Part shown: one piece after another, positions 30,302 through 33,743 of the stretch
How the letters are laid out: each line of letters opens with the position of its first letter
How positions within the stretch are numbered: position 1 is the first letter of the stretch
Assembly: GCF_944321625.1 (NCBI RefSeq)
Contig: NZ_CALUMA010000051.1
Coordinates: 1-39,909, forward strand
Length of the DNA: 39,909 nt
Direction: 5' to 3'
Source of the DNA: an uncultured Slackia sp.
GTDB lineage: Bacteria > Actinomycetota > Coriobacteriia > Coriobacteriales > Eggerthellaceae
Position numbers and translations under genes: made by a program
Notes under the pieces: generated by a model
The model's input: the letters and a program-made list of their open reading frames with translations, nothing else
Databases searched by the model: none
Told to the model about the DNA's origin: nothing

Positions 30302-31621
30302 TTAGTCGAACGCTCGCATCACGAATTGATACGCCTCCTGATAAGTCATGCCGTTATCAGACGCCGCAATCGCCTGCGCGCTTGATGCCGCGACCACCGC
30401 TTCGACGCTATCGTGCTCAGGCGTAATGCGAACGCGGCCATCGGGAAGCGTGACTTTTTTGGCACGGACCTCGCCGTAAGGCGTGCTGGCGCGCAGCTCC
30501 TCACGCGGAAGCACCGTGCGCCCCATGGCGGTGCGCCTGATGCCGATGGTGGTGGTATGCGCGAACAGCTCCGCCTCCATGGCGGGAATGTCGTCCTGCA
30601 TGCAGATGACTTGGATCTGATACGCCGGGCGATTCTTCTTCATGAACACAGGCATGAAGTGCGCCTCGCGAGCCCCTGCGGCAAACAGGCGCTCCATCAC
30701 GAAGCCCAGCGCCTCGCCCGTGCAATCGTCCACGTCGCATTCGAGCTTCCAGATGTGCGACTCGCGAACCGAACCAGCACACGGCCTCGCCCCGTCGGTC
30801 GCCTCTTCGATAATCATCGCGCGCAGAAGGCTGGGTACTGCATAGGCACGCTTGCCTGCGCCCAACCCCACACGCTGCACCGTGAAACACTCGGGCAACG
30901 TGCTGCGCGTGCGCACGGCGACGGTAAGAGCGGCGCCGGTAGGCGTGACGAACTCGCCCTGCGCATCCATGATCGAAAGCGGGATGCCTGCCTCGGTGAC
31001 GATGTTGGACACGGCAGGCACCGGCACAGGCAGCACGCCATGCTGACAGCGCACCGAGCCGCGGCCCTCGCACAGGCGTTCCACCACCACATCATCAAGC
31101 CCCAGGTCATCGAAGCACACAGCGAACGCCACCACGTCGACGATGGAGTCCACCGCACCGACCTCGTGAAAATGGACCTGGTCAATCGACACGCCATGCG
31201 CCTTCGCCTCGGCACGTGCGATGATGCCGAAGATGCGCAGGGCCAGGTCTTTGGCGCGGTCGGTTATATCGGCCGCGCGGATGATGGCCTCGATTTCCGG
31301 CATGCCGCGGTGCTCGTGATGATGACTGCGAGCGTGCTCGTGTGCGCCGTGCTCATGGTGATGATTGTGATCGCCGCCGCCGTGCAAGTACACCATGTCG
31401 TGGTCGTGATTCTCGTGCACGGCGTCCAGCACCACGTTGAAATCACATGCGTCGAGGCCCGCCTTCTTCACGCGCGACACACGCGCCTCGAATCCGTCGA
31501 CCGGCAGGCTTGCGAGCGCCTTCTGCAGCTTTTCCTCACTCGCACCCAAATCAAGCAGCGCCGCCACGGCCATATCGCCGCTGATGCCCGCCGCACATTC
31601 CAAATACATCATTCGTCCCAT
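30302..31621 (-). CDS. larC: Nickel insertion protein LarC
   Basis: 439 residues. LarC inserts Ni into pyridinium-3,5-bisthiocarboxylic acid mononucleotide in a CTP-dependent step, completing the nickel-pincer cofactor of lactate racemase-family enzymes. N-terminal MMYLECAAGISGDMAVAALLDLGA, the FHEVGAVDSIVDVV motif and EFVTPTGAAL are family hallmarks. A His-rich stretch (about 69-104, with HNHHHEHGAHEH and HHHEH) fits nickel binding or storage. The gene is one uninterrupted frame, whereas in Lactiplantibacillus plantarum a programmed frameshift is used. Start at 31621 with AAAGGA upstream; MMYLEC three codons on is an alternative. Co-oriented with larB, larE and a MerR gene; no larA target enzyme is in the window. 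Confidence 0.93.
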   Translation of the reverse strand: MGRMMYLECAAGISGDMAVAALLDLGASEEKLQKALASLPVDGFEARVSRVKKAGLDACDFNVVLDAVHENHDHDMVYLHGGGDHNHHHEHGAHEHARSHHHEHRGMPEIEAIIRAADITDRAKDLALRIFGIIARAEAKAHGVSIDQVHFHEVGAVDSIVDVVAFAVCFDDLGLDDVVVERLCEGRGSVRCQHGVLPVPVPAVSNIVTEAGIPLSIMDAQGEFVTPTGAALTVAVRTRSTLPECFTVQRVGLGAGKRAYAVPSLLRAMIIEEATDGARPCAGSVRESHIWKLECDVDDCTGEALGFVMERLFAAGAREAHFMPVFMKKNRPAYQIQVICMQDDIPAMEAELFAHTTTIGIRRTAMGRTVLPREELRASTPYGEVRAKKVTLPDGRVRITPEHDSVEAVVAASSAQAIAASDNGMTYQEAYQFVMRAFD

Positions 31622-31676: not shown

Positions 31677-31785
31677 AGAGTTCGTAAGTCCAAAATAATG
31701 GCAGAGCTCTGACCAGGTATTATATAGTATATCGCCTGGTCAGAAGGCCATTTGGAAACGCCAAAATAATCGAGTTGCGAACTCT
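31677..31785. repeat. Nested inverted-repeat element between larB and larC
   Basis: The outer 16-bp ends (starting AGAGTTCG at 31677 and its complement ending at 31785) match at 13 of 16 positions, the first 8 perfectly. Inside is a perfect 9-bp inverted repeat CTGACCAGG/CCTGGTCAG (31709-31717, 31735-31743) around a 17-base AT-rich core with a minus-strand TATAAT. The 10-mer CCAAAATAAT occurs twice (31690-31699, 31761-31770). It could be a small MITE-like insertion or an operator-promoter for larC; no target-site duplication was clear. Confidence 0.65.
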
Positions 31786-31835: not shown

Positions 31836-32561
31836 TCACGCCTCTTGCGCACGCTCCGCGGCGCGCTTGCAGGCATGGTCGATGAGCGCCGCCTGATAGC
31901 CCGCGCCGAATCCGTTGTCGATGTTCACCACGCTCACGCCGCTCGCGCAGGAATTCAGCATGGACAGCAGCGCGGCGATGCCGCCCAGGCTCGCACCGTA
32001 CCCCACGCTCGTGGGCACCGCGATGACTGGACATTTTGCCATGCCGCCCACCACGCTGGCAAGCGCACCCTCCATGCCGGCGACCGCCACCACGCTGCTC
32101 GCACCCGCAATATCATCCGCGTGCGAAAAGAGCCGATGAATGCCCGCAACCCCCACGTCATACAGACGCACAACGCGGCTGCCCAGCATCTCGGCAGTCA
32201 CGGCCGCCTCCTCGGCAACGGGCAAATCGCTCGTGCCCGCGCAGGCAACGCACACGTAGGCGTCGCCGTCCGACTCGGGCAAACCGCCCACGATGCCGAG
32301 ACGCGGCGTCTCACGATATTCGAACACGTCAGCATCGCACGCCGCCAAAAGCGCCTTGACCTCAAAAGCTTTCTCAGAATCGAGGCGCGTGATCAGCACG
32401 CGCGTCTGCCCCGCATCGCGCAGCGCGGTCACGATGCCAGCAATCTGATCGGCAGTTTTTCCTTCGCCGTAAATCACCTCGGCAACACCGGTGCGCTCCT
32501 CGCGCTGCGTGTCCGGCTTGGCATAGCCCAGGTCTATGTATCCTTCTGGCATGTCGGTCAT
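31836..32561 (-). CDS. larB: LarB, nicotinic acid adenine dinucleotide carboxylase/hydrolase
   Basis: 241 residues. LarB carboxylates the pyridinium ring of nicotinic acid adenine dinucleotide and cleaves it to the biscarboxylic mononucleotide, the first step of nickel-pincer cofactor synthesis. The PurE-like C-terminal half is clear: [45 protein letters not shown] and [40 protein letters not shown]. The N-terminal [26 protein letters not shown] is also typical. Start at 32561; a second ATG three codons on is possible, and the ribosome site is weak for both. An AT-rich 80-base gap separates it from larE; 214 bases with an inverted-repeat element separate it from larC. Confidence 0.94.
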
Positions 32562-32564
32562 CTC

Positions 32565-32660
32565 TATACTTTCTATTAGTAACTTACTATCTATTTTAAG
32601 TCTTAATACCTAATAATACTTACTAGCTATTCTGATTCTACTAACATATAGATAGCTGCA
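32565..32660. other. AT-rich patch at the larE/larB junction
   Basis: About 95 bases with very low GC inside a GC-rich genome. Two 16-base direct repeats, ACTTACTATCTATTTT (32582-32597) and ACTTACTAGCTATTCT (32618-32633), differ at 2 positions. The last codons and the stop of larE lie inside it. It may provide a larB promoter (minus-strand TAAAAT and TATTAT are present) or be the scar of a deletion or insertion. Confidence 0.6.
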
Positions 32661-33306
32661 TTCCTAATGAGTGCGTCACTTGGCCAAGCGATTCGCGCGT
32701 TAGCGGCTCTCCAGGTGGCACCTTGGTGGCAAAACACGAGAAATTGGGCTTATCGGCCGTGGACAGACTCATGGCTCGCGACGCCGCACGCACATCGTCC
32801 TTCGTGAACCCCGCCTCACGAAGCGGAGAACGCACGCCCAGTTCCGCAAGCGCACGGAAGCCAGGTCGGTTCGCGGGATCATCAGTCGCGTTCGTCCCAT
32901 CAAGCAGCACGCGCCGTCCATCCCGCTCCATCGCCGCAAGCACCTGGCCGAAGATAAACCGCTTGCACAGGTAGCACCGATCGGGCGGATTCGCGCACAC
33001 GTCGGCCTGCGAGAGAATGTCGGCGCGTATCAACTCGAATTCCGCACCCGTCTCCTCAACGACGCGCCGCGCATCCTCAAGCTCAAACGGCGCCTGGAAC
33101 GCGGTCATCACCATGTACGCCTTCACGTCCAGCCCGGCGCGACGCATGACGGCCAGCAGAAACGACGAGTCGCACCCACCGGAAAACGCCAGGCCGTAGC
33201 GCTCGTCGGGACTAAGCGAGGCCACCGCATCCTCCCAGGAGAGCTCGCCGCCGAAAGGGACCGACGCGTCGCTACCCTCCGTAACGCTTTGGAGCGAGGC
33301 GCTCAT
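32641..33306 (-). CDS. larE: LarE sulfur transferase, C-terminally truncated
   Basis: 221 residues; LarE proteins are usually about 270. ATP-dependent enzyme that converts the two carboxylates of the pyridinium precursor to thiocarboxylates. The PP-loop SGGCDSS (42-48) is intact. Cys111, Cys114 (RCYLCK) and Cys191 (SCFATK) match the three-Cys type thought to carry a [4Fe-4S] cluster rather than the sacrificial single-Cys type. The frame ends about 30 residues after Cys191, in the AT-rich patch, so roughly the last 50-70 residues are missing. It may still work, or be decaying. The start at 33306 shares a base with the MerR stop (TAATG) and is preferred over an ATG 10 codons upstream. Confidence 0.88.
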   Translation of the reverse strand: MSASLQSVTEGSDASVPFGGELSWEDAVASLSPDERYGLAFSGGCDSSFLLAVMRRAGLDVKAYMVMTAFQAPFELEDARRVVEETGAEFELIRADILSQADVCANPPDRCYLCKRFIFGQVLAAMERDGRRVLLDGTNATDDPANRPGFRALAELGVRSPLREAGFTKDDVRAASRAMSLSTADKPNFSCFATKVPPGEPLTRESLGQVTHSLGMQLSIC

Positions 33307-33743
33307 TACGCCTGCCCCTCGCCGCACGAATCGCACAAACGCGAACCGGGCTGCGCAGGTTCCGCACCAGGACGCATGCTCTTCTCCGCCTCGAGAATGA
33401 TGGTCTCGTAGTTCGCAATCTTGTAATTCAAGCGGTCGAGGCCCGCCTGCAGATCAGCAATGCGCTCACGCACCAAATCGCGCTGCTCCTCGAGCAAGGC
33501 CTTGCGCGCGGGAGCCGTCTCTTCGCCCTCGTCGAACAAATCCATGTACTCGATCAGAGCCTCGATGGACACGCCTGCCGCACGCATGCACTTCAGGAAC
33601 TCGATGGTGCTGCAGTTCGTCTCGTTATATTCGCGAATGCCACTCTCGGTGCGCGGCACATGACGCAGCAAGCCAACACGCTCGTAATAGCGCAGCGTAT
33701 CGGCCGAAATGTCGTAGCGCTTGCTCACTTCGGCGATTTTCAT
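33306..33743 (-). CDS. MerR-family transcription regulator, probable regulator of the lar genes
   Basis: 145 residues. N-terminal MerR helix-turn-helix MKIAEVSKRYDISADTLRYYERVGLL with wing residues ESGIREY, then a long coiled-coil dimerisation helix (ALLEEQRDLVRERIADLQAGLDRLNYKI). The C-terminus ends SRLCDSCGEGQA, a Cys-x-x-Cys pair that could bind metal or sense thiol state (inference). The ATG at 33743 has AAAGG 8 bases upstream; a longer upstream frame would run through the promoter and is rejected. The stop overlaps larE, so it is the first gene of the lar operon. A typical MerR promoter stands upstream. Confidence 0.88.
   Translation of the reverse strand: MKIAEVSKRYDISADTLRYYERVGLLRHVPRTESGIREYNETNCSTIEFLKCMRAAGVSIEALIEYMDLFDEGEETAPARKALLEEQRDLVRERIADLQAGLDRLNYKIANYETIILEAEKSMRPGAEPAQPGSRLCDSCGEGQA

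What the first reader, a model, noticed from the sequence alone, without database searches (positions are those of the whole stretch)
32565..33306. LarE cut short at an AT-rich patch
Seen: larE ends about 30 residues after its third cluster Cys, without the usual C-terminal region. The stop lies in about 95 bases of very AT-rich DNA with 16-bp direct repeats. larB and larC are intact. Inference: deletion or insertion scar with loss of the end of larE, or a shorter functional LarE type. Either would matter for nickel-pincer cofactor synthesis.
Basis: partly seen in the sequence, partly recalled or inferred. Interest (0 to 1): 0.55.

Follow-up and report, generated by a model that had tools for sequence, protein, structure and literature searches.

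The report
Naturally short LarE sulfur-transfer enzyme
The gene does not look broken: many related gut bacteria carry the same shortened version of an enzyme that helps build a nickel cofactor, and it lacks the part thought to hold its substrate, so it may work in a new way.

Summary
larE (32641-33306, minus strand) ends 30 residues after its third cluster cysteine and has no counterpart of L. plantarum (Lp) LarE from residue 208 on. A complete LarE of the same short form occurs in 33 of 120 genomes (own plus 119 relatives); 36 short proteins form one clade (support 100/98). It groups with a LarE subtype that is full-length in Bacillota and archaea and usually lies beside larB and larC. The short gene is under purifying selection (dN/dS 0.13-0.29 in four close pairs). 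The ATP loop and the three cluster cysteines are kept in 36 of 36; homology ends before Arg212/Arg214, and Arg181 and Glu200 are kept in only 2 of 36 each. Positions 180, 212 and 214 are the proposed phosphate contacts. Three relatives whose only LarE above cut-off is short carry an NPN-dependent isomerase (group 22). Best reading: a functional [4Fe-4S] LarE variant that holds its substrate differently. No LarA-type user was found in the window's own genome. The AT-rich patch is larE-larB junction DNA, where most relatives have the start of LarB. Activity is untested.

The parts
32641..33306 (-). larE, short form, 221 aa from ATG (alternative GTG at 33336, 231 aa); stop codon 32641-32643
   Evidence: TIGR00268 165.7 bits, profile 10-193 of 259; ORF
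33166..33183 (-). PP-loop SGGCDS (residues 52-57 of the 231-aa numbering)
   Evidence: S52 G53 G54 D56 S57 invariant in 38 aligned LarE and in 36 of 36 short forms
32965..32976 (-). CxxC (C121, C124), cluster ligands 1 and 2
   Evidence: invariant in 38 of 38 and 36 of 36 short forms; role by analogy with T. maritima LarE, PMC9283937 passages
32734..32736 (-). third cluster Cys (C201)
   Evidence: invariant in 38 of 38 and 36 of 36 short forms
32562..32660 (.). AT-rich patch: 3' end of larE plus larE-larB intergenic DNA, with imperfect 22-nt direct repeats; single copy in the genome
31836..32561 (-). larB; lacks an N-terminal segment of about 25 aa seen in most relatives
   Evidence: NF033503 274.3 bits; N-termini compared
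30302..31621 (-). larC with both LarC1 and LarC2 domains
   Evidence: TIGR00299 192.8 bits, NF052512 141.8 bits; PF01969 425.2 bits
33306..33743 (-). MerR/NmlR-type regulator directly upstream (start at 33743 inferred); its stop overlaps the larE ATG
   Evidence: NF041849 146.9 bits, below its cut-off of 175; MerR Pfam domains; a gene of the same cluster next to larE in L047, L049, L050, L057, L059
31677..31785 (.). palindromic hairpin between larB and larC
   Evidence: arms 31677-31702/31760-31785 and 31708-31724/31728-31744; folding z -4.56

Best explanation
larE encodes a naturally short, working LarE: a PP-loop ATP pyrophosphatase with a tri-cysteine [4Fe-4S] site that puts sulfur into the pyridinium dicarboxylate made by LarB, before LarC inserts nickel. 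Its last 60-75 residues were lost once, in a lineage now found mainly in Eggerthellaceae. With them went Arg212 and Arg214, and Arg181 and Glu200 are no longer conserved, so the proposed phosphate-binding side of the active site is gone. I infer that the short enzyme still adenylates the carboxylate and passes sulfide from the open iron of the cluster, and that the substrate is held differently, by other residues or by a partner such as LarC or LarB. Shown here: conservation, single origin on the tree, purifying selection, retained ATP and cluster motifs, larB and larC in the same genomes, co-occurrence with NPN-dependent isomerases in five other genomes. Inferred: activity, cluster content, product, and how the substrate is held.
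For: 33 of 120 genomes have a complete LarE of this short form, 29 of them above the model's cut-off; all 33 have LarB and at least part of LarC. 36 short proteins form one clade, support 100/98. dN/dS: window versus L059 larE 0.15/1.15, about 0.13 (larB about 0.08, larC about 0.14); three other close larE pairs give about 0.17, 0.24 and 0.29. PP-loop residues, CxxC and third Cys kept in 36 of 36 short forms. The AlphaFold model is confident (pLDDT 89.3) and aligns to Lp LarE residues 3-207 at Z 22.5 and to [4Fe-4S] LarE 8cnz at Z 22.4. No C-terminal remnant in the short loci, best 5.5 bits, against 67-102 bits in four full-length control loci. Of 67 full-length sister-type loci, 61 hold larB, 56 larC and 54 both. 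In G017, G020 and G062 the short LarE is the only one above cut-off and a group-22 NPN isomerase is present (491, 462 and 495 bits, cut-off 400); in G020 the order is LarC-LarE fusion, larB, isomerase. K190 and H206, at the LarA cofactor spacing, are invariant in the 14 aligned LarA-type proteins, group 22 included. R. badeniensis and Gordonibacter An230 carry a short LarE and a LarAH6-type malate racemase (576.7 and 569.8 bits, cut-off 500).
Against: The residues proposed to bind the P2CMN phosphate (Ser180, Arg212, Arg214 of Lp; PMC9283937 passages) are absent or changed. No LarA-type user was found in the window's own genome nor, in 30 of 33 short-LarE genomes. LarC2 was not found in 25 of 26 short-LarE genomes outside the genus (the exception, G034, has it with its second, full-length LarE), so the pathway there may differ. 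In 15 of 32 short loci of relatives larB is not in the fetched stretch. No activity was measured. A second LarE was not looked for in R. badeniensis and An230. dS is near saturation in the window-L059 pair.
Confidence: 0.72

Rival explanations
1. The short LarE is catalytic but works on another substrate, or makes another product, than P2CMN to P2TMN; its genomes make a different pincer-like cofactor or a different thiolated compound.
For: Homology ends before Arg212/Arg214; the Arg181 position is R in 2 of 36 short against 45 of 46 full forms, the Glu200 position E in 2 of 36 against 45 of 46. LarC2 not found in 25 of 26 short-LarE genomes outside the genus. No LarA-type user found in 30 of 33.
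Against: Five other short-LarE genomes carry NPN-dependent enzymes by family model. LarB and LarC are retained, in the window's genome with LarC2.
Confidence: 0.17
2. The missing C-terminal function is supplied in trans or by fusion: LarC, LarB or another protein completes the substrate site. (This can hold together with the best explanation.)
For: LarC1 core fused in frame to the short LarE in G020; GNAT domain fused to the short LarE in L039, L042, L045, L080 and L082.
Against: The LarC fusion was seen once and the GNAT fusions in a few relatives; most short forms (33 of 36) have only 8-61 residues after the Lp Leu193 position. No separate C-terminal piece in the window's genome (that empty search had no positive control of its own).
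Confidence: 0.25
3. Deletion or insertion scar: a pseudogene or damaged larE.
For: The stop lies in unusual AT-rich DNA with imperfect repeats.
Against: Same ending in a whole clade, purifying selection, no remnant of the lost part. Of eight relatives whose larE-larB junction was read, seven have GC 0.56-0.70 there and only L059 is AT-rich (0.34 over 62 bp), yet all have the short LarE.
Confidence: 0.03
4. Assembly or sequencing error.
For: Draft genome of 124 contigs; reads not available.
Against: Nearest relative L059 (77% identical) has the same ending; 31 further genomes have the short form.
Confidence: 0.01

Closest known systems
[4Fe-4S]-dependent LarE (Thermotoga maritima; solved entries 8cnz, 8cp3, 8cp4)
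   Same: PP-loop SGGxDS, CxxC plus distant Cys, same fold over the shared part (Z 22.4 to 8cnz)
   Different: lacks the C-terminal region with the Arg212/Arg214 equivalents
Sacrificial LarE of L. plantarum (5udq and related entries)
   Same: same fold over Lp residues 3-207 (Z 22.5)
   Different: tri-Cys site instead of the single sacrificial Cys176; no equivalent of Lp 208 onwards, which includes Asp231 and Arg228 at the three-fold axis (PMC7118094 passages)
Full-length LarE subtype of Bacillota and Thermoplasmatota (e.g. Acidaminococcus provencensis, L110)
   Same: closest relatives outside the clade (43-55% identity); 54 of 67 loci hold both larB and larC
   Different: keep about 60 more residues with the FRVR motif; Arg at the 181 position in 29 of 29

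Membership tests
LarE (TIGR00268) | score above the curated cut-off | tested here: met
   165.7 against 150 bits; of the 33 short forms 29 pass, 4 do not (G010, G029, G060, G015)
LarE (TIGR00268) | SGGxDS ATP-binding loop | tested here: met
LarE (TIGR00268) | CxxC-C cluster motif (Fe-S type) | tested here: met
   C121, C124, C201 in 36 of 36 short forms
LarE (TIGR00268) | C-terminal region with substrate-phosphate residues Arg212 and Arg214 | tested here: not met
   protein ends at Lp 207; R32 and R34 of A5 (their equivalents) invariant in 23 of 23 full-length C-termini. I therefore file it as a variant of LarE, not as a canonical LarE
LarE (TIGR00268) | sulfur transfer to P2CMN | not testable with these tools
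   needs enzyme assay
NPN biosynthesis pathway | LarB and LarC beside LarE | tested here: met
   window order larE-larB-larC, both above cut-offs
NPN biosynthesis pathway | a LarA-superfamily user in the genome | tested here: not met
   PF09861 0 matches; group-22 protein none; mixed LarA profile gives only a DUF362 protein, 16.6 bits. About 15% of genomes analysed have larB/E/C without larA (PMC11796402 passages)
Pseudogene or deletion scar | reading frame broken relative to close relatives | tested here: not met
Pseudogene or deletion scar | relaxed selection | tested here: not met
   dN/dS about 0.13 for window-L059, 0.17-0.29 for three other pairs

The most novel reading that the evidence does not exclude
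The short LarE, together with the LarC forms without the LarC2 domain found in most of its carriers, marks a second route to a nickel-pincer-type cofactor in which the phosphate-handling parts (Arg212/Arg214 of LarE, the LarC2 part of LarC) have been shed, so that the pathway handles a differently held, differently substituted or phosphate-free pyridine precursor, used in part by proteins outside the LarA superfamily. The window's own genome, which still has LarC2 but no LarA found, would be an intermediate.
Probability: 0.12. Interest if true: 0.75.

Novelty: new variant of a known kind. Interest (0 to 1): 0.45.

Why it matters
LarE thiolates a small-molecule cofactor, in the Fe-S type through a [4Fe-4S] cluster. 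A conserved form without the proposed phosphate-binding region is a natural deletion test of which parts are needed. It also bears on the open question of what uses the nickel-pincer cofactor in organisms with larB, larE and larC but no larA: this clade offers genomes with only a short LarE above cut-off, some with a recognisable user (group 22) and many without one found. Named carriers such as Adlercreutzia muris, A. caecimuris, A. hattorii and Rubneribacter badeniensis make it testable.

Tried and rejected
AT patch as a mobile scar: one copy in the genome (the other four matches are 14-24 bases), no promoter-like hit in it, no unusual RNA fold (z -0.43), no Rfam match in the window at gathering thresholds. 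Leftover C-terminus in another frame next to the short genes, or elsewhere in the own genome: none. LarA under another name in the own genome: the best hit of a mixed LarA profile (16.6 bits) is a DUF362 protein. Three other weak PF09861 hits looked at (in G065, where it passes PF09861's cut-off, and in G111 and G108) are DUF362 proteins with ferredoxin domains; rejected as LarA. The aldo/keto reductase near larE in many genera (cluster 2, 19 loci; Pfam) as a partner: in the own genus it is away from larE or not in the stretch, so I treat it as shared gene order. Link between LarC2 loss and short LarE: not one-to-one, since several full-LarE relatives (e.g. G023, G027, G041) also have a small LarC and the Atopobiaceae MAG L085 has short LarE with a full LarC.

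Rows left out and weak points: the tree used 36 short, 29 sister-type (27 of 67 named loci plus L072 and L073) and 17 canonical sequences (16 of 30 fetched, plus L066). L064, L104 and L139 (cut at contig ends), L067 (fragment) and eight named short loci (L079-L083, L092, L093, L101) were left out. L068 gave no hit. The first automatic labels called L073, L153 and L157 short; they were corrected by eye. The tree does not settle whether the short clade lies inside or beside the sister type (weak inner support), and its bootstrap had not settled (0.982). L066 (G092) and L067 (G106) are short LarE-like frames outside the clade that I did not resolve. In the short tails the alignment (Glu200 position) is uncertain.

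Papers: PMC9283937, PMC11796402, PMC11770544, PMC7583248, PMC7118094, PMC12611868 and PMC13329287 were seen as abstracts in listings and as passages only. Searches for a report of a short LarE or of lar genes in Eggerthellaceae found none; this covers only the held library. PMC5576804, PMC6093250 and PMC10806937 are not held.

Full report
What is there. On the minus strand the window holds, in order, a MerR-type regulator, larE, larB and larC. larE (32641-33306) scores 165.7 bits to the LarE model but stops at profile position 193 of 259. Its last residue corresponds to L. plantarum (Lp) LarE residue 207 (structural alignment of model 29-231 to 3-207; sequence alignment). The genome has no other LarE above cut-off.

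It is a clade, not an accident. In a search of 120 genomes (own plus 119 relatives) 80 had a LarE above the cut-off. After fetching the loci with short matches I count 33 genomes with a complete LarE whose LarE part ends shortly after the third-cysteine motif; 29 of these score above the cut-off and 4 below. After the position of Lp Leu193, 33 of the 36 short forms in the tree have 8-61 more residues and three run on in frame into a GNAT domain. One further short match runs into a contig end (L064) and two short frames fall outside the clade (L066, L067). The nearest relative, L059 of the same genus, is 77% identical and ends at the same place. A maximum-likelihood tree of 82 LarE, built on 163 columns of the shared part, puts 36 short forms in one clade (100/98); shortness needs a single change. 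The short clade joins a sister type that is full-length (together 100/100); whether it lies inside or beside that type is not settled. Of 67 such full-length loci 54 hold both larB and larC.

It looks functional. dN/dS between window and L059 is about 0.13 for larE, 0.08 for larB, 0.14 for larC, with dS near saturation for larE; three other close larE pairs give about 0.17, 0.24 and 0.29. The PP-loop residues and the three cysteines are kept in 36 of 36 short forms. All 33 short-LarE genomes have LarB and at least part of LarC; larB lies in the fetched stretch in 17 of the 32 relatives' loci and elsewhere in the other 15. A profile of the lost C-terminal part finds it in four full-length control loci (67-102 bits) and in none of the short loci above 5.5 bits. 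In G017, G020 and G062 the short LarE is the only LarE above cut-off, and each has a nickel-pincer-dependent isomerase of group 22. In G020 the genes follow each other: LarC core fused in frame to the short LarE, larB, isomerase. Two named genomes, R. badeniensis and Gordonibacter An230, have a short LarE fused to a GNAT domain and a LarAH6-type malate racemase by NCBIfam (576.7 and 569.8 bits, cut-off 500). Whether these two also have a second LarE was not tested.

What is lost. In full-length LarE six positions of the C-terminal side are invariant in the 23-row alignment: equivalents of Lp R181, L193, E200, G207, R212 and R214 (numbering from the alignments). In short forms the R181 position is R in 2 of 36 (45 of 46 in full forms) and the E200 position is E in 2 of 36 (45 of 46); homology ends before R212 and R214; L193 is kept in 35 of 36. 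Among window residues 40-217 only three positions that are at least 93% conserved in full forms fall below 60% in short ones, and the R181 position is one of them. [quoted passage not shown] the 180 position is T in 18 and V in 16 of 36 short forms. So the ATP and cluster sites are kept and the proposed phosphate side is gone. The three-fold-axis residues Asp231 and Arg228 (PMC7118094 passages) are also absent, so the oligomer may differ (inference); by that paper a D231R variant kept activity and a hexamer-like profile.

Mechanism. I think the short LarE adenylates a carboxylate of LarB's product and transfers sulfide from the open iron of a [4Fe-4S] cluster, as proposed for T. maritima LarE, with the mononucleotide held by other residues or by a partner. 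K190 and H206 are invariant across the 14 LarA-type proteins aligned, group 22 included; their spacing of 16 equals that of the cofactor lysine and nickel-ligand histidine named in PMC12611868 (passage). This argues that the end product in the group-22 genomes is still a pincer cofactor. LarC2 was found in 6 of the 7 short-LarE genomes of the window's genus (in the seventh LarC is cut at a contig end) but in only 1 of 26 outside it; the Atopobiaceae MAG has a full LarC, and some full-LarE genomes also lack LarC2, so the two losses are not strictly linked.

No user found at home. The window's genome has no LarA-type protein by three searches. PF09861 above 100 bits occurs in 12 of 120 genomes, none with a short LarE; group 22 occurs in 5 of 120, three with a short LarE. 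The mixed LarA profile was run on 71 of the 120 genomes only. Of 46 further genomes reached by locus, 2 of 6 with a short LarE and 18 of 40 with the full sister type have a LarA-type match above 150 bits. That larB, larE and larC occur without larA in about 15% of genomes analysed is already in print (PMC11796402 passages).

The AT patch. It is the lowest-GC 95 bp of the window, single copy, with imperfect repeats rarer than in shuffles. It is the larE-larB junction. In 92 of 95 LarB frames of fetched loci an N-terminal segment precedes the core; the window and L059 lack about 25 residues of it. Any loss at this junction therefore more likely hit the start of larB, in an ancestor shared with L059, whose junction is also AT-rich but less so (0.34 against 0.24). 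Its cause is unexplained.

Verdict. A conserved short variant of LarE, unusual in what it lacks. Activity is the missing test.

Noticed in passing
31677-31785: Nested palindrome between larB and larC, folding far better than shuffles (z -4.56); the inner-arm pattern occurs once in the window and, among 194 loci, only in two that overlap the window. Possibly an operator or a small hairpin element.
   Followed up: partly
31836-32561 and L059:6815-7564: LarB of the window and of its nearest relative lacks the N-terminal segment that 92 of 95 LarB frames have.
   Followed up: partly
L043:5473-8972: In-frame fusion of a LarC core to the short LarE, followed by larB and an NPN isomerase of group 22.
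   Followed up: partly
L039, L042, L045, L080, L082, L083: Short LarE in one open frame with a C-terminal GNAT acetyltransferase domain (Pfam in L039, L042, L045, L080, L082; L083 by resemblance).
   Followed up: partly
L034:7702-8262, L044:7571-8119, L191:5202-6104 and others: LarC forms without LarC2, some also without the N-terminal part, in genomes with short and with full LarE.
   Followed up: partly
33306-33743: MerR/NmlR-type regulator with a C-terminal CDSC motif overlapping the larE start; a candidate metal or redox regulator of the lar genes.
   Followed up: no
L066 and L067: Two other short LarE-like frames outside the clade (other families of the order), unresolved.
   Followed up: no
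L038 and L073 (one genome, G034): One genome carries both a short LarE and a full-length LarE, the latter with its own larB and larC.
   Followed up: partly
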